23,929 nt of DNA from a virus. The position numbers were made by a program, and so were the translations under genes. The stretch spans positions 1-23,929 of the IMG/VR virus record IMGVR_UViG_3300025889_000944; one strand, written 5' to 3'. A model generated the notes under the pieces. That model was given only the letters and a program-made list of their open reading frames with translations. It was not told where the DNA came from and searched no databases. Below are positions 7,932-20,475 of the stretch, piece after piece (the first letter of the stretch is position 1; each line of letters starts with the position of its first letter).

Positions 7932-8552
7932 CTATAAGGTTTCTTCAACATCAAATTCAAATTGATATAAAAATGCACCATCTTTTGCTGTTCCTACTGC
8001 ACCAAATTCTTGAATATCATTTGTTAAGTGTACTGTAAAAGGAACATTATCATAAGTAACTACTGAATTATCTGCAAGTGCTGTAAGTAAAGGTGGCTCT
8101 ATTGTAACTGTTGAAGCATTACTAGATGCTTGAACATCTGCGACTACCATATAAACTTTATTGTGTGATGCAAACTTAATAAAATCTCCAGCTTTAAATG
8201 CGTGTGGATTATCGTTGTGGTGTCCGTCCATAGCAATCGTTGTATCTCCAACTGCGTGAACACCATTAACTAAAACAGTTCCTGATTCATTACCTCTAGC
8301 ATCTTCTATTTCAGGTGGGATTATTGTAAAGTTTTCTTTGCCTGATCTTTGTTTTATTATAAAAGCCATTAACTCTCCATAAACATCTGATCTAGTTCCT
8401 GTAACTATTCTAACTGTAAATCCAAATCTTTGATTGTCTATTTGTCTTGCAAGTTTCTTACCAGATACAGATTTAGATATAATAGTATTTTGAATAGACT
8501 TTATTCCTAAAGTTTCAAATTTCGCAGAAGATATTGGAAAAGCACCAGACAT
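7932..8552 (-). CDS. Distal tail / hub-like minor tail protein
   Basis: A 206-aa protein whose ATG comes right after the tape measure stop. Seen: the N-terminus (FPISSAKFETLGIKSIQNTI, then SGKKLARQIDNQRFGFTV) has the look of distal tail (Dit) proteins, with an arch of beta strands. GELMAFIIKQRSGKENF is a helix seen in such proteins. A beta-rich insert follows (AGDFIKFASHNKVYMVVADV; STVTIEPPL), which resembles the small barrel domain seen in tail proteins that carry an inserted carbohydrate-binding-like domain. In operon order it sits where lambda gpM or GTA gp12 lies, between tape measure and DUF2163-like hub protein. Role inferred from position and fold hints; alternative is a fibre-anchoring adaptor. 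Confidence 0.62.
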   Translation of the reverse strand: MSGAFPISSAKFETLGIKSIQNTIISKSVSGKKLARQIDNQRFGFTVRIVTGTRSDVYGELMAFIIKQRSGKENFTIIPPEIEDARGNESGTVLVNGVHAVGDTTIAMDGHHNDNPHAFKAGDFIKFASHNKVYMVVADVQASSNASTVTIEPPLLTALADNSVVTYDNVPFTVHLTNDIQEFGAVGTAKDGAFLYQFEFDVEETL

Positions 8553-10348
8553 TATATTAAGTTTCTACTCCCTCTTTCATTAACAGCACTATTAATTAAT
8601 TGTGTAATAGTTCCTCTTGATCTAACTAATAATTCTTCAAAGCCAGAAGCATCTACTGTATTAATATTAAAATTAACTGTTGTTGCACTACCACCATTAC
8701 CACCTCTTGCTGATTGTTGTATCTGACCAGATTGGTTTGGTATAAATAATTCTGCACCTCTTTCGCCTACCATGTATGGTTGTCCTTTTTGTACTGAACC
8801 ACCTGATGCTCTACCACTAAAGAAACTTCCTATTGTGCTAAATATACTATTACCACCACTTAAAGCCGCTTGTTTTTGTTTTTCTTTTGTAATTAATTTT
8901 TCAATAGCAAGTTCAACTCCTTTTCTTGCAACAATTTCTATTAAAGCACTTAAAACATTTACTAATAATGATCTTGCCATATTTTTAAATGTATCTGATA
9001 ATTTTTCTCCAAATACAAATGCTCTTGCAAGACCCTCTGACATTTTTGTTATTCCATTATTAATACTTTCAGCAATAGTCATTCTTATATTTTTCATTTT
9101 ATCTTCTAATGTTTTTAAACTACCACTATTTAGTTCTCTAAATTTAGATATAGCTTTTTCTGTTGCAGTTGGTATTTTAACAGATAATTCATGTTCAAAA
9201 TCATGTATAATTTGTAAAGCTGATTCTACTGGTTCTACAAAACCATCATTAGCATCTGCACCACCTAAAATATCTTTTTGTACTTTATATGCTTCATTGT
9301 TTTGATTAATTTTTTCTGTAATTTTATCTATTTCTTTTCCTAACAATTTAAAAGTTGCAATAGATGCCGCAACAGATGCGGCAACTAATGGTATTCCAAC
9401 TCCTGATAAACTTACCATAGCCCTTAATCCAGCAACAACAGGAACAATGGCTCTAGCCATGTTTATAAACATATTAGCAATCTTTAAAGATATAATTGCT
9501 TTTAATGCTAAAAATAATTTATCTGAATGTTGAGCCATAAAGGCAATTCCTTTACCAACTTTTTCTACAACAGTTGCTAATACAGTTCCTAAAGTTACAG
9601 CAATCTTATCTAATGTTTCTTCATTCTGTCCTAATGTTTTGTCTAATGCTTTAAATTGATCTTTTAATGTTTCAAAAAAACCAGCTTCTAATAATACTTT
9701 TTTAAAGTTAAATATTTTATCTCCAATCATTGATAAAGTACCCTCAAAAGTATTTGCTAATTGATCTGTTGCTTTACCAAATCTTCCCTCTTTTCCAAAT
9801 GTTTTTTCAAATGCTTCTACTGTTGCTTCAATAGATACAGTTGCACCAGCTTGGAAACCAAGCATATTTCTAACACCTTTTTCTCTAAATAAATCTGCCG
9901 CACCTATACCAGCACTAAATGATCTCTGTATTTGTTCTGCTGTTGTTCTAAAATCTAATCCTGTAACTGCCGCAACATTACCAGTAATTTCTAACATTTG
10001 TTTTAAGTCTTTAGCATTGTCTGTAACAGTTGCTAAAATACCAGAACCTGATTGTATTTCTTCAAGAGAGAATGGAACTTTAGATGCAAACTTAACCATA
10101 TTGTCAAAGGCTTTTGCACCCTCATTTGTATCTTTAAGTAAGAATTTTAATCTAACTCTTAAATTTTCTAATTCTTTACCTGTATTAACTAAATTTCTAA
10201 TTACTAATCCAGCACCTAAACCAATAAAAGCATTTTGTAAATTAAACACAGCACCTTTAACTTTAGATAAAGCACCTTGAACATTGTTTAATGCTTGTTT
10301 GGATTTATCTCGTGCTACAATGTCTATATTAAGTCTTTGATTTGCCAT
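8552..10348 (-). CDS. Tail tape measure protein
   Basis: A 598-aa protein starting MANQRLNIDIVARDKSKQAL, with ATG overlapping the chaperone stop (TAATG). Seen: an amphipathic N-terminal half with Lys/Ala-rich helices and an early hydrophobic segment (NAFIGLGAGLVIRNLV). The middle, about 280-345, has several hydrophobic stretches (IVPVVAGLRAMVSLSG; IPLVAASVAASIATF). The C-terminus carries GGSVQKGQPYMVGERGAELF, the familiar end of many phage tape measures, followed by a Gly/Ser linker. Known: the protein fixes tail length at about 0.15 nm per residue, which gives roughly 90 nm here, a short to medium siphovirus tail. The middle hydrophobic region probably enters the host membrane at DNA injection. 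The position after the chaperone gene is diagnostic. Confidence 0.9.
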   Translation of the reverse strand: MANQRLNIDIVARDKSKQALNNVQGALSKVKGAVFNLQNAFIGLGAGLVIRNLVNTGKELENLRVRLKFLLKDTNEGAKAFDNMVKFASKVPFSLEEIQSGSGILATVTDNAKDLKQMLEITGNVAAVTGLDFRTTAEQIQRSFSAGIGAADLFREKGVRNMLGFQAGATVSIEATVEAFEKTFGKEGRFGKATDQLANTFEGTLSMIGDKIFNFKKVLLEAGFFETLKDQFKALDKTLGQNEETLDKIAVTLGTVLATVVEKVGKGIAFMAQHSDKLFLALKAIISLKIANMFINMARAIVPVVAGLRAMVSLSGVGIPLVAASVAASIATFKLLGKEIDKITEKINQNNEAYKVQKDILGGADANDGFVEPVESALQIIHDFEHELSVKIPTATEKAISKFRELNSGSLKTLEDKMKNIRMTIAESINNGITKMSEGLARAFVFGEKLSDTFKNMARSLLVNVLSALIEIVARKGVELAIEKLITKEKQKQAALSGGNSIFSTIGSFFSGRASGGSVQKGQPYMVGERGAELFIPNQSGQIQQSARGGNGGSATTVNFNINTVDASGFEELLVRSRGTITQLINSAVNERGSRNLI

Positions 10349-10877
10349 TATTTAAATTTCCTTGCTTCTGCTAATGATTGTTTTGTTTTATACTCATCTT
10401 GCTCTTTTTTCAAGTATGCTAACCAAAGATTATAATGGCTAACAGGCATATCAAGAACTTGTTGTATTGTAAGGTGTAATCTCTCTGCAACGACTAAAAG
10501 CGACCTGATGTCAGGGTCGCTATCTACTTTTTTTCGGCTTCCTCGTAATTAGTGTCTAAAAGTATTTGATTGGCAACAGTAGATATAACATTTGAGTCTG
10601 CTTTTTTTCTTAATGCAAATTTATCTTCTGGGCTAAAGGCTTTAATCATTTCTCCTTTGTCATTTTTGACTTGGAGTTTCATTATAAGCAAATCAACAAG
10701 AACAGTTAAATCTTGAAAGTTACTAGACTTCTTAAAGATAATGTTTTTTTCTTCAAGAGTTAATGGTTCTGAATAAAAGACACTTGGTTTCCCATGTTCG
10801 TCTTTCCATTGTTCCACCTCAATAGTGATAGTTTTAAGAGTTTCAAAATGAGTTTTAACTCTATCAATAACTGACAT
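10348..10877 (-). CDS. Tail assembly chaperone frameshift product (G-GT type)
   Basis: A 176-aa product that I infer is made by -1 frameshifting. Residues 1-117 come from the short chaperone frame. At A AAA AAG the ribosome slips back one base and reads GTA GAT AGC instead of the stop TAG. The extension adds 59 residues, VDSDPDIRSLLVVAERLHL... , and ends in a TAA that overlaps the tape measure ATG. The extension has the GT look (VLDMPVSHYNLWLAYL, then charged helix KKEQDEYKTK). Its frame has no good start codon or ribosome binding site of its own except an internal ATG, and it fills the only gap between the chaperone and tape measure, which supports fusion. Known: G and GT proteins chaperone the tape measure in long-tailed phages. 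Confidence 0.85.
10499..10533 (-). promoter_or_regulatory. Programmed -1 frameshift signal: slippery heptamer and hairpin
   Basis: On the minus strand the heptamer A AAA AAG lies at 10533-10527, in the chaperone frame, immediately before the zero-frame stop TAG (10526-10524). Five bases further comes an inverted repeat at 10521-10499 (AGCGACC, one bulged C, TG / CAGGTCGCT, ACAT loop) with a stem of about nine pairs, GC-rich against a very AT-rich background. A AAA AAG is the E. coli dnaX slippery sequence, and a stem-loop 5-8 bases downstream is the usual stimulator. The -1 frame stays open to the tape measure start. Confidence 0.85.
10524..10877 (-). CDS. Tail assembly chaperone, short form (gpG-like)
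   Basis: A 117-aa protein, MSVIDRVKTHFETLKTITIE..., ending EEAEKK followed at once by TAG. Seen: the N-terminal beta-rich piece (ITIEVEQWKDEHGKPSVFYS) and LTLEEKNIIFKKS match the general shape of phage tail assembly chaperones that lie between tail tube and tape measure. The stop codon sits directly after the slippery AAAAAAG, so this short form and the long frameshifted form would be made in a fixed ratio. The upstream ribosome binding site is weak; the start is the first ATG after the tail tube stop. It is not expected in the finished virion. Confidence 0.82.
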   Translation of the reverse strand: MSVIDRVKTHFETLKTITIEVEQWKDEHGKPSVFYSEPLTLEEKNIIFKKSSNFQDLTVLVDLLIMKLQVKNDKGEMIKAFSPEDKFALRKKADSNVISTVANQILLDTNYEEAEKK

Positions 10878-10886
10878 AAATTAGGA

Positions 10887-11273
10887 TTATACAGTTCCTA
10901 TTGTTAATGCACCAGTTCCTTGAAAAGTAACAGTTCTTGAAATAATTGCGTCCATTGAGTTATTTACAGACATACCAGTTACAATTCCTGTACCTGAAAA
11001 ACTTCTGTCGCCACTTGCATTACCCTCTGGGAGTAAAATAAAAGCGAGTGAAGCACCAGCTACCATATTTGTTTGTGGTGTATCAGTTTCGTCAAAGTGC
11101 ATTTCTAAAGTACCAGAGAATGAAGTTCTACCAGCAACAAAAGATTTAGTTGCATCTGTTAAAGCTGTGTCCTCTACTACATCTCCAGTTGTTTCTAGTG
11201 TAAAGCCTGTAAGTTCGCCACAAGCAGTTCCACCAACTGTTACAACTCCTTCTTTTCCGTGATGTGTTGCCAT
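10887..11273 (-). CDS. Major tail tube protein
   Basis: A 128-aa protein beginning MATHHGKEGVVTVGGTACGE. Seen: a beta-rich, Gly/Thr-rich sequence with strands LTGFTLETTGDVVEDTAL, SFSGTLEMHFDETD and SRTVTFQGTGALTIG. This is the text of small tail tube proteins of siphoviruses, with the VEDTALTD loop common in them. It is small for the family (often 140-250 aa) and lacks an added Ig-like domain. It lies between the tail terminator group and the chaperone gene, the standard place. Its ATG overlaps the end of the upstream 55-aa frame by 34 bases. High expression is expected, but no special promoter is seen. Confidence 0.85.
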   Translation of the reverse strand: MATHHGKEGVVTVGGTACGELTGFTLETTGDVVEDTALTDATKSFVAGRTSFSGTLEMHFDETDTPQTNMVAGASLAFILLPEGNASGDRSFSGTGIVTGMSVNNSMDAIISRTVTFQGTGALTIGTV

Positions 11274-17465: not shown

Positions 17466-18704
17466 TTACTTCATTGTCCATCTTGTAGGAGAATTAAATC
17501 TTGCCTGTGTGGTTAATGGTTTTAAATAATCAATCATGTAACCAAGTGCGTCGTTCATATGATCGAATCCATCTTCCTTATCAGGAATATTTGTATTCTC
17601 CTTGTATATTTGTCTAGTAAGTCCTTTTATCAGCACTTTTAAATTATTACAAACAAAAATATGACGATCTCCTTTAGAATCTTTAAGCCTACTATTAACT
17701 GCATTCACTCTATCTCGTATAGCTGGGTGTTTGTGTTTTACCTTAACTTTAAATCCAGCATTTTGTAAAATAGATAAATCAGTTCTACCACCAGCAGAAG
17801 TTTTACGTTGTTTAGAAGCTGGGTCAGGGTAAGCAATTATTTGTGCTTTACTTCCATATCTATCTCTAATCTCTTGTACTAATTCATCAGTATTACTTCC
17901 ATAAATAACTATCTCATCTATAAAATATAATTTTTCTTTTTCTATTTGAGCAACACAACACGACATGGGATCGACATTAAAATCGACCCCAAGATGAAAG
18001 GGTTTAGTCCAATCAATTTCTCTTGGCTTAACAACATTATCAACAGGGTGGAAATTATAATAAACACTACCAGCATAGTTTTCAAATGTACCCTCAAACT
18101 CTTGTCTAAAAGTTCTAATATCAATATCTTGTTTAGCTTGTTCTATTTCTTCTGGTGTAACCATACCACCTTGAATAGTAGTGAATTGGTAACTATCCCA
18201 TTCATCATCTTGCTTACCTTTAAGATACATTTCATAACTCCAATTACCATAACCTTTAGGAGTACCACACATTAAAACACTTCCTAATGTATCAGCAACA
18301 CTAGCACGTAAAACTTCAAACCATGCTCGTTTATCTATATCTGCAAACTCATCTAATATTAAAAAGTTAATTCCTGAACCTCTTAATGAGTCATAATTAT
18401 CTGCACCTTTTAATGAGATTGTACTATTAGATTTTCTTATCGTAATAGTCATAGTGGTTTCGTTAATATCTTCTATCCAATTAAATTGATTAAGCATTTC
18501 TTTTAAACTAGCCCATGCAATCTCTTTAGCCATTTTAAACGTGGGTGCTACATACCATATTTTTTGTTTAGTTTTAGATGCGTACTTCATCATCTCTGTT
18601 ATACAAAGATAAGTTTTACCAAATCTACGACCTGATATTAAGACTCTAAATCTAGCTTCTGAATTACTTACTTTAAGCTGGGGTTTTGTCAGGGATATTT
18701 TCAT
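17466..18704 (-). CDS. terL: Terminase large subunit
   Basis: A 412-aa DNA packaging motor with intact motifs. Seen: Walker A SGRRFGKT at 24-31; an adenine-contact region around 50-55 (WYVAPT); Walker B FLILDE at 114-119 with D118 and E119; motif III GTPKG at 147-151. In the nuclease half are D241 and D245 (LGVDFNVDP), YPDP at 292-295 and D381 (FDHMNDALGY). These fit the Terminase_6N plus RNase H-like nuclease layout. The ATG overlaps the end of the 73-aa exported gene by 32 bases, and no strong ribosome binding site is visible, so the start is the only ATG that keeps a normal N-terminus. The small terminase lies over 3.5 kb upstream, which is unusual. Confidence 0.93.
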   Translation of the reverse strand: MKISLTKPQLKVSNSEARFRVLISGRRFGKTYLCITEMMKYASKTKQKIWYVAPTFKMAKEIAWASLKEMLNQFNWIEDINETTMTITIRKSNSTISLKGADNYDSLRGSGINFLILDEFADIDKRAWFEVLRASVADTLGSVLMCGTPKGYGNWSYEMYLKGKQDDEWDSYQFTTIQGGMVTPEEIEQAKQDIDIRTFRQEFEGTFENYAGSVYYNFHPVDNVVKPREIDWTKPFHLGVDFNVDPMSCCVAQIEKEKLYFIDEIVIYGSNTDELVQEIRDRYGSKAQIIAYPDPASKQRKTSAGGRTDLSILQNAGFKVKVKHKHPAIRDRVNAVNSRLKDSKGDRHIFVCNNLKVLIKGLTRQIYKENTNIPDKEDGFDHMNDALGYMIDYLKPLTTQARFNSPTRWTMK

Positions 18705-18894: not shown

Positions 18895-19166
18895 TAACCT
18901 AATGGGTTCTTATTAGATTCTTTTAACTCTTGTATCTCTAATTTTAATACTTCTATTTCTTTTTGCATTATAGCAATCTCTTTGTCTTGATTTGTTATTG
19001 CAGAAGCATTTGTTTCTATTCCAGATATATCAGGTGCAGTAGCAGTTGATAATTGTTCTATTGTAGATTCCATCTTTGCAAACTTTGTAAATCCAGCACC
19101 AATAGATGCAATAAGACCTAGTATTACAACTATGTTTGTTAGATTGTCTTGTATTTTTTTAACCAT
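18894..19166 (-). CDS. Membrane protein with periplasmic coiled coil (90 aa)
   Basis: A 90-aa protein with a GGAG ribosome binding site before the ATG. Seen: MVKKIQDNLTNIVVILGLIA, with a hydrophobic segment at about 11-27, basic residues before it, and then a long coiled coil from about 55 to 84 (KEIAIMQKEIEVLKLEIQEL). The short N-terminus, single TM and outward coil match the layout of inner-membrane spanin subunits and of some holins, but they are also common in small anchors. It overlaps the 438-aa gene by eight bases and the 73-aa exported gene by one. Function unproven. Confidence 0.68.
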   Translation of the reverse strand: MVKKIQDNLTNIVVILGLIASIGAGFTKFAKMESTIEQLSTATAPDISGIETNASAITNQDKEIAIMQKEIEVLKLEIQELKESNKNPLG

Positions 19167-20475
19167 TTTTTAACTCCTGTAATTCTAAAAGTAATAGCCT
19201 TTTTTTAGACTTAATTTCATTTAGTTTTTTTATCTTAACTTCCATTATATCATTAGCAATATATTCTACTAAATCAACATTAGTATATATAGACCTATTA
19301 TCAAATATCTCTATCTGATTCAAATAAATATCTTTAGGCTTGTAAAACTCGGTATTATTATAAGCAGATAATGATACTTGGTCATTCTGCATAGCATCTA
19401 ATTTAATAATGTTTTTAATAGTTAAGTTTTTTGCACTATCTTTAATCTGTTCATCTACTTTAGCCATAATCTTGTCTATTTTAGGTTTCTTTGTTTTCTT
19501 CTTTGCTACCTTTGTTTTAATCTCTTTTTTAGGTGCTTCTTGACTAGATTCTTCAACAATTTCTTCCTCTTGTATTTCTTCCTCTTTTTCCTCAACAGCT
19601 TCTTCCATAATTTCTTCGGTAATCATTTCTTCTTCTAGCTTTTCCTCAATCATAGTTTCTTCCATAACCTCTGGTTTTTTCTCTATAATTTCTGGTTCTT
19701 TTTCTGGCATAGATACAATCTCAATAGATTCTTCTACTTCAAATACTTCTTCTAGTTTAGGTTCTTCTTTAATCTCAAATGTAAATTCTTCTTCTAATTT
19801 TATTTCTTTAAATGTTTCTTCTTGTAATTCCTCAAAGACATTGTTTATTTCTTCTATTATCTCATTAGATATAACTTCATCATCATAAGTCATAGTAACA
19901 ACAATATTATCTACATTAGCACCACCTAGATTAGAGGGTGCATTAGCATCTGTACCAGCTATATTTAGATTACCAAGATTAGAATCTTGTCCATTGTATA
20001 TAAGTCTATCTGTAAAGTTAGCACCATTGATTCCTGTAACATCAGTTCTAATAGTAGTGTTTGTAGCTAATACATTGCCATCTGAATCTTTTATTTTTAA
20101 TGTAATTGTAAATGTGTCTGCATTACCACTACCACCCCAACAACCAGCTACTCCACATTCTCCATTTTGTACTTCTACTGTGCTGTTAAGAGTTATGCCA
20201 TTATTAAGCATAGTTTGATTTATAGAATCAGTAGTTAAATTAAACTGTTGTTCTATTGAGCCACTATCTCCAAACTCTAAATCATAATTTGATGATACAC
20301 CATTAAGTTCACAGCAATCATTTAATACTTGGACATCTCCATTAGTAGTCCAACCATTAGCATTTCCTGTTTCAAAGTTGCCGTTAGTTATTAAATTATT
20401 TGTCGTCTTTTCTTCTGCTAAAGAAGTTGTAAGGGTTAACATCATCAACAAAACGATTGATACGATATACTGCAT
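19159..20475 (-). CDS. Exported Glu-rich protein with jelly-roll-like N-terminal domain (438 aa)
   Basis: I recognise the type from marine phage contigs but not a function. Seen: a signal peptide with probable cut after SLA at residue 20. A domain at about 25-200 starts NLITNGNFETGNANGWTTNG, like carbohydrate-binding jelly rolls, and has C54-C55 and C107/C112, possible disulfides. A Glu-rich low-complexity stretch at about 205-315 follows, then a Lys-rich patch (KTKVAKKKTKKPK) and a helical end with KKRLLLLELQELKNG. This is a periplasmic layout: folded head, long charged spacer, basic part. AGGAG lies nine bases before the ATG. The first 80 bases overlap a 38-aa frame. It sits in the membrane cassette. 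Spanning of the periplasm or binding of cell-wall sugar is possible; both are guesses. Confidence 0.72.
   Translation of the reverse strand: MQYIVSIVLLMMLTLTTSLAEEKTTNNLITNGNFETGNANGWTTNGDVQVLNDCCELNGVSSNYDLEFGDSGSIEQQFNLTTDSINQTMLNNGITLNSTVEVQNGECGVAGCWGGSGNADTFTITLKIKDSDGNVLATNTTIRTDVTGINGANFTDRLIYNGQDSNLGNLNIAGTDANAPSNLGGANVDNIVVTMTYDDEVISNEIIEEINNVFEELQEETFKEIKLEEEFTFEIKEEPKLEEVFEVEESIEIVSMPEKEPEIIEKKPEVMEETMIEEKLEEEMITEEIMEEAVEEKEEEIQEEEIVEESSQEAPKKEIKTKVAKKKTKKPKIDKIMAKVDEQIKDSAKNLTIKNIIKLDAMQNDQVSLSAYNNTEFYKPKDIYLNQIEIFDNRSIYTNVDLVEYIANDIMEVKIKKLNEIKSKKRLLLLELQELKNG

What the first reader, a model, noticed from the sequence alone, without database searches (positions are those of the whole stretch)
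10348..10877. dnaX-like -1 frameshift signal makes a G-GT tail chaperone in an AT-rich phage
The slippery heptamer A AAA AAG (10533-10527) is followed at once by the zero-frame TAG, and five bases later by a GC-rich hairpin (10521-10499). The -1 frame continues 59 codons and ends in TAATG at the tape measure start. The stop is placed directly after the slip site, so only ribosomes already in the -1 frame go on. All parts of a textbook programmed frameshift are present although no gene finder would show the second frame.
Basis: partly seen in the sequence, partly recalled or inferred. Interest (0 to 1): 0.72.

Follow-up and report, generated by a model that had tools for sequence, protein, structure and literature searches.

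The report
Frameshift-made tail chaperone in ocean phages
A phage whose nearest named relatives infect the ocean bacterium Pelagibacter appears to make two versions of one tail-building helper protein by letting ribosomes slip back one base at a set place, a known trick of tailed phages; hundreds of relatives keep the slip site, and a sister group seems to do the same job with a different signal.

Summary
On the minus strand, A AAA AAG (10533-10527) is followed at once by TAG and, five bases later, by a stable hairpin (10521-10499). The -1 frame runs 59 codons to TAATG at the tape measure start. A slip heptamer is present in 361. The -1 frame is open in 360, has no ATG, GTG or TTG ahead of the slip site in 361, and is under protein-level selection. 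In the window's branch all 233 keep A7G or A8, an adjacent stop and a stem starting at the same base; its 3' arm exists in two positions (214 compact, 19 extended) and the extended form covaries. G has the fold of the HK97 tail assembly chaperone. So this is a new, well-supported member of the lambda-type G-GT frameshift class. New, as far as my searches reach, is the sister branch (128 relatives, among them Pelagibacter phages HTVC026P and HTVC202P): it keeps the same second frame but has an invariant A9C and no stable hairpin, so ribosomal and transcriptional slippage both stay possible there.

The parts
10524..10877 (-). zero-frame gene G, 117 aa, tail assembly chaperone
   Evidence: open reading frame; AlphaFold2 model matches HK97 tail assembly chaperone 2ob9
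10541..10544 (-). GAGG, Shine-Dalgarno-like, 7 nt ahead of the heptamer; possible helper only
   Evidence: present in 189 of 208 compact A7G, 6 of 6 A8, 5 of 19 extended relatives; dependence on stem type not significant on the tree
10527..10533 (-). slippery heptamer A AAA AAG
   Evidence: slip heptamer kept in 361 of 361 distinct relatives
10524..10526 (-). zero-frame stop TAG directly after the heptamer
   Evidence: adjacent in 233 of 233 of the window's branch, 120 of 128 of the sister branch
10499..10521 (-). stimulatory hairpin, compact form
   Evidence: fold; rare codons fixed in both arms; 233 of 233 of the branch have a stem from this base; covariation in the extended form
10348..10527 (-). 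-1 frame, T domain, 59 aa and stop
   Evidence: open in 360 of 361, pN/pS 0.21, no start codon ahead of the slip site; model pLDDT 92.9
8552..10348 (-). tape measure gene, overlapping the T stop (TAATG)
   Evidence: PF20155 below its cut-off
10887..11273 (-). major tail protein gene
   Evidence: phrog_10528 E 1.1e-8

Best explanation
A programmed -1 ribosomal frameshift at A AAA AAG makes a minority G-T fusion from a tail assembly chaperone gene. Most ribosomes read G and stop at the TAG beside the slip site. Some, held up by the hairpin that begins 5-6 nt downstream, re-pair the two Lys tRNAs one base back, pass the stop and add the 59-residue T domain, which ends in an overlap with the tape measure start. 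As in lambda, G would coat the tape measure protein and T would bring in the tail tube protein. Shown here: anatomy, conservation, protein-level selection on the -1 frame, a covarying stem, the chaperone fold of G. Inferred: slippage in the cell, its rate, and the roles of G and G-T.
For: Heptamer in 361 of 361 distinct relatives. -1 frame open in 360, no ATG/GTG/TTG ahead of the slip site in 361, pN/pS 0.21 in the window's branch against 0.93 and 4.50 in the other frames. Stem from the same base in 233 of 233 of that branch, extended form 98.1% paired with 9 cells changed on both sides, 0 of 500 shuffles as high on pairing and covariation score. Ser TCG 213 of 213 and AGC 208 of 208 in the stem arms against 1.2% and 3.5% usage. 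Fusion matches phrog_16513 tail assembly chaperone at 5.5e-7. G fold: HK97 chaperone first by two methods; both halves match the RcRhea chaperone model. A downstream hairpin is not yet made when RNA polymerase passes the run, so its conservation points to the ribosome (inference).
Against: No expression data. The sister branch has no stem. The compact stem hardly varies, so its pairing is supported by codon choice more than by covariation. The stem with longer flanks is not exceptional in single-sequence folding. Host tRNA-Lys content could not be checked. Foldseek E-values are weak taken alone.
Confidence: 0.9

Rival explanations
1. RNA polymerase, not the ribosome, slips on the A7 run and adds one A to some mRNAs, so that standard translation makes the fusion.
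For: The sister branch has an invariant A9 run without a stem. PMC3711429 lists runs of more than seven A as transcriptional slip sites and reports 10% frameshifting at a seven-A cassette of another gene (passages).
Against: The window has only A7. The conserved, covarying stem lies downstream of the run and its codons are fixed. Within the branch A7G, A8 and C-A7G all keep an X XXY YYZ heptamer.
Confidence: 0.06
2. T is a separate gene started anew behind G (re-initiation), not a fusion.
For: The second frame follows the stop closely, as in coupled genes.
Against: No ATG, GTG or TTG in that frame ahead of the slip site in 361 of 361, and none in the first 15 codons after it in 330 of 361. In the window the first ATG is codon 27, inside the conserved domain.
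Confidence: 0.01
3. The hairpin is an intrinsic terminator or attenuator between G and the tape measure gene.
For: T-rich stretch after the compact stem: at least 5 T in the next 8 bases in 175 of 214.
Against: The T run is interrupted in many compact relatives and absent behind all 19 extended stems; the pattern scan finds a terminator-like site only on the other strand; the sister branch lacks the hairpin.
Confidence: 0.02

Closest known systems
Lambda G/G-T tail assembly chaperone pair and its frameshifted relatives (Xu, Hendrix and Duda 2004, recalled and as cited in PMC5009743)
   Same: Gene order, two products from one start, -1 shift near the 3' end of G, T frame without its own start, overlap with the tape measure start; HK97-like fold of G.
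   Different: Heptamer A AAA AAG with stem and adjacent stop instead of lambda's G GGA AAG (lambda motif recalled). Rate and ratio unknown here.
E. coli dnaX -1 frameshift signal
   Same: A AAA AAG with a downstream stem-loop at short distance.
   Different: In E. coli dnaX the shifted product is the shorter one; here the longer. The Shine-Dalgarno-like GAGG is 7 nt ahead of the heptamer; the 10-nt spacing in dnaX is recalled. PMC5009743 (passage) notes rarer dnaX genes with the stop directly after the shift site and the longer product shifted, which is closer.
Rhodobacter phage RcRhea tail assembly chaperone
   Same: Annotated as a joined product; matches both halves of the window's fusion; its stop also directly follows a heptamer, G GGA AAC TGA (read).
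   Different: 22.6% identity; no A run at the overlap.
Thermus thermophilus dnaX transcriptional slippage
   Same: Only the sister branch resembles it: run of nine A, no stem.
   Different: The window has A7 and a stem; slippage of RNA polymerase not tested.

Membership tests
Lambda-type G-GT frameshifted tail assembly chaperone | Gene lies between the major tail protein and tape measure genes | tested here: met
   phrog_10528 upstream, tape measure PHROGs downstream; same order in HTVC112P, 111P, 202P, 026P
Lambda-type G-GT frameshifted tail assembly chaperone | Second frame in -1, without its own start, conserved as protein | tested here: met
   open in 360 of 361, no ATG/GTG/TTG ahead of the slip site in 361 of 361, pN/pS 0.21 and 0.39 in the two branches
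Lambda-type G-GT frameshifted tail assembly chaperone | Slippery heptamer in the overlap | tested here: met
   361 of 361 distinct relatives
Lambda-type G-GT frameshifted tail assembly chaperone | Chaperone fold of the G part | tested here: met
   2ob9 (HK97) first by Foldseek (E 0.027, probability 0.99) and by VIA (Z 9.2, 100 residues)
Lambda-type G-GT frameshifted tail assembly chaperone | Fusion made at a low, set ratio; absent from the virion | not testable with these tools
   needs proteomics
dnaX-type bacterial -1 ribosomal frameshift signal | A AAA AAG heptamer | tested here: met
dnaX-type bacterial -1 ribosomal frameshift signal | Stem-loop 5-8 nt downstream | tested here: met
   starts 5-6 nt downstream; range 5-8 nt as stated in PMC4066793
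dnaX-type bacterial -1 ribosomal frameshift signal | Upstream Shine-Dalgarno stimulator | tested here: inconclusive
   GAGG at 7 nt, common but not fixed
Transcriptional slippage site (Thermus dnaX type) | Run of nine or more A or T | tested here: not met
   window has A7; met only in the sister branch, 128 of 128

The most novel reading that the evidence does not exclude
One homologous phage gene has switched its recoding mechanism. The window's branch slips ribosomes (A7G with a hairpin whose 3' arm can move), while the sister branch (HTVC026P, HTVC202P and other contigs, 128 distinct sequences) slips RNA polymerase on an invariant A9C without a hairpin. This would repeat, inside one tail-chaperone family, the E. 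coli/Thermus split of dnaX. For it: in the sister branch only 5 of 51 conserved codon columns never change synonymously and 4 of them are GTA AAA AAA AAC of the run; GTA lies outside the A AAA AAC heptamer, and three other Val columns changed 18 to 26 times; no stable structure. Against it: the invariant C, and that A9 also offers the ribosome a second heptamer, A AAA AAA, which would need the A of GTA.
Probability: 0.35. Interest if true: 0.62.

Novelty: new member of a known kind. Interest (0 to 1): 0.42.

Why it matters
Frameshifted tail chaperones are known from many tailed phages, so the window's case is expected. It is useful for two reasons: the second frame is missing from the four Pelagibacter phage records examined, and 361 distinct relatives give a deep comparative record of one signal. 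Within it a stimulatory stem changed the place of its 3' arm repeatedly (8 changes on the best tree) while keeping its 5' arm, and the sister branch has a longer run and no stem. That makes it possible to ask, in one gene and with cultured phage-host pairs, how such signals are exchanged and whether the slip can pass from ribosome to RNA polymerase.

Tried and rejected
Single-sequence folding with long flanks gave no clear signal; comparison across relatives was used instead. A first fold survey with 34-nt windows suggested that a few relatives had lost the stem; longer windows showed that their 3' arm had moved. Profile searches of G and T against solved structures by sequence gave no chaperone (none; designed helical repeats and an effector protein, short helical matches, not followed). 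Pfam gave only sub-threshold, unrelated matches for the window's G and none for T. The genome-contig scan gave one relative, on a contig binned with a Campylobacteraceae MAG, taken to be a stray phage contig. Avoidance of A9 runs in the sister phages is not clear: 6 runs of nine or more A against 7.2 expected in HTVC026P, 2 against 7.2 in HTVC202P. A trade-off between GAGG and the extended stem looked strong in raw counts but has at most 4 well-supported independent pairs, so no claim is made.

Rows dropped: of 650 sources (649 loci and the window) 9 had no G match and 15 sequence rows were cut by a contig end. Of the 365 distinct rows left, L358 (two rows) and L518 have G broken by indels and were left out of the counts; both still hold slip site, stop and stem. 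Sinorhizobium phage phi3LM21 (A AAA AAC, stop one codon later) was kept apart as outgroup. Trees used one row for each distinct G stretch and signal type: 346 rows without the outgroup. In the alignments for structure prediction I used a reduced set of relatives (36 of 361 for G, 72 of 361 for T, window included), and L480 was left out of the T set.

Full report
What the sequence shows. The window is a 23,929-base IMG/VR virus record, 31.6% G+C; the genes examined lie on the minus strand. ORF 10877-10524 (117 aa) ends GAA AAA AAG TAG. The heptamer A AAA AAG is at 10533-10527, the stop at 10526-10524, and a stem-loop at 10521-10499. From 10527 the -1 frame reads 59 residues and stops at TAA 10350-10348, sharing one base with the tape measure ATG.

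Surroundings. Upstream lies a major tail protein gene (10887-11273, phrog_10528, E 1.1e-8); downstream the tape measure gene and a distal tail protein gene (phrog_1302, E 8e-23). Portal and terminase genes lie further along. The 176-aa fusion matches phrog_16513, tail assembly chaperone, at E 5.5e-7; G alone does not match it and T alone reaches only 0.075.

Named relatives. tblastn in the phage collection finds Pelagibacter phages HTVC112P (86.5% over the fusion), HTVC111P (80.9%), HTVC202P (43.2%) and HTVC026P (42.5%), then Sinorhizobium phage phi3LM21 and Rhodobacter phages. In the four Pelagibacter phage records the -1 frame is not annotated; HTVC112P and HTVC111P carry an antisense 'hypothetical protein' there. 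RcRhea's chaperone is annotated as a joined product. That the window infects Pelagibacter is an inference from these relatives.

Large comparison. Eight scans of viral contigs and one of genome contigs, pooled with GenBank records and the window, gave 365 distinct G-to-T stretches; without three rows with broken G and the phi3LM21 outgroup, 361 remain. Signal types: A7 then G, 227 (222 preceded by G, 5 by C); A8, 6; A9 then C, 128. The -1 frame is open in 360; L480 lacks one base of the stem and stops after 10 codons. In the -1 frame there is no ATG, GTG or TTG ahead of the slip site in any of the 361, and none within 15 codons after it in 330. In a 96-nt stretch past the hairpin, pN/pS is 0.21 for the -1 frame of the A7/A8 branch (0.93 and 4.50 for the other frames) and 0.39 for the A9C branch (0.72 and 1.67), from 1500 random pairs each. 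So the second frame is a protein that can only be reached by shifting.

The stem. In the A7/A8 branch all 233 have a stem whose 5' arm starts at the same base (GCGA in 232, GCAA in one). In 214 the 3' arm is the nearby GGTCGC type (compact). In 19 it lies 13 nt further on, in the codons for Leu-Val-Val-Ala (extended). On the 14 distinct extended forms 98.1% of cells pair, 9 cells are changed on both sides (for example U-A to C-G, G-C to A-U), and the covariation score 0.242 is above all 500 shuffles and above the slid controls; the number of pairs with a change on both sides (3) is reached in 33 of 500 shuffles. The compact arms hardly vary, so they say little by covariation (L474 shows one C-G to U-A change, read), but their codons are telling: Ser TCG 213 of 213, Ser AGC 208 of 208 and Arg AGG 209 of 210 (L480 left out), against 1.2%, 3.5% and 6.0% usage in the window's ORFs. 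Compact and extended forms need 8 changes on the best G tree; strongly supported branches alone force 4 for the extended group. In 34-nt windows the stem is the most stable of its own gene in 202 of 222 of the G-A7-G type (207 with a slightly different background); at 48, 60 and 80 nt this falls to 148, 85 and 75 of 222.

The sister branch. The A9C type is one side of a single, fully supported branch of the tree. It has no stable structure: median -0.6 kcal/mol in the 34-nt window against -2.5 for the same genes elsewhere, and never the most stable window of its gene at 34, 48, 60 or 80 nt. Its stop is adjacent in 120 of 128, one codon later in 5, four codons later in 3; in the window's branch adjacency is strict, 233 of 233. 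Of 51 conserved degenerate codon columns only five never change synonymously on the tree, and four of them are GTA, AAA, AAA, AAC of the run. Asn is AAC in 128 of 128 there against 17.4% in the rest of these genes, although both frames would allow T. The run is nine A in 128 of 128, which speaks against phase variation. In the window's branch the same test gives 6 of 66 columns without change, among them the GAA and AAA of the slip site; the AAG column has two changes, to AAA.

Protein. AlphaFold2 models with relatives as alignment: G pLDDT 78, T pLDDT 92.9, three helices. The best solved match of G is 2ob9, the HK97 tail assembly chaperone (Foldseek E 0.027, probability 0.99; VIA Z 9.2, rmsd 3.3, 100 residues). 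The E-value is weak by itself; the match counts because it is first by both methods and fits the gene order. Among viral models both G and T match RcRhea's chaperone.

Mechanism. The best reading is programmed -1 ribosomal frameshifting: tandem Lys tRNAs re-pair at A AAA AAG while the ribosome meets the stem. [quoted passage not shown] coli than A AAA AAC, describes lambda G/G-T (ratio 30:1) and its conservation among long-tailed phages, and reports polymerase slippage at nine A or T. PMC3711429 (passages) measured 6% and 7% for two tail chaperone genes of an HK97-like cluster. Transfer of these figures to this phage is inference. A strong stem with A7G and no stem with A9C would fit two ways to reach a suitable level, by the ribosome in both branches or by RNA polymerase in one.

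Novelty. The window's signal is a new member of a known kind. The searches (tail assembly chaperone, frameshift, slippage, slippery, stem-loop, covariation, pelagiphage and the HTVC names in several combinations) list no paper on this gene's signals; of these I saw listings and starts of abstracts, plus passages of PMC5009743, PMC3711429, PMC4066793 and PMC10885494. Xu et al. 2004 was not looked up and is cited from the passages and from memory.

Noticed in passing
window 10416-10387 (- strand), inside the T frame: A second block of fixed rare codons: TAC TTG AAA and, 15 nt later, TATAAA never or hardly change in the A7G branch (TTG 204 of 204 in compact relatives; TTG is 3.9% of Leu). It looks like a promoter (TTGAAA-N15-TATAAA) ahead of the tape measure gene; absent from the A9C branch. 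The consensus scan, which asks for spacers of 16-18, does not list it.
   Followed up: partly
HTVC112P 19123-19269 and HTVC111P 18179-18331 (L082, L083): Annotated antisense 'hypothetical proteins' that lie over the T frame; probably not genes.
   Followed up: partly
HTVC026P gp47 (L651:21400-21813), HTVC112P gp46 (L653:22452-22838): Genes annotated as toxin-activating lysine acyltransferase stand among the tail genes, ahead of a large tail protein; a possible lysine acylation of a tail protein.
   Followed up: no
L358, L518, L480: Three contigs have indels that break G (L358, L518) or T (L480) while keeping the slip site; assembly errors or dead copies.
   Followed up: partly
L087:2824-2833 (Rhodobacter phage RcRhea): The chaperone gene of RcRhea also ends with its stop directly after a heptamer (G GGA AAC TGA), as in the window's branch.
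   Followed up: no
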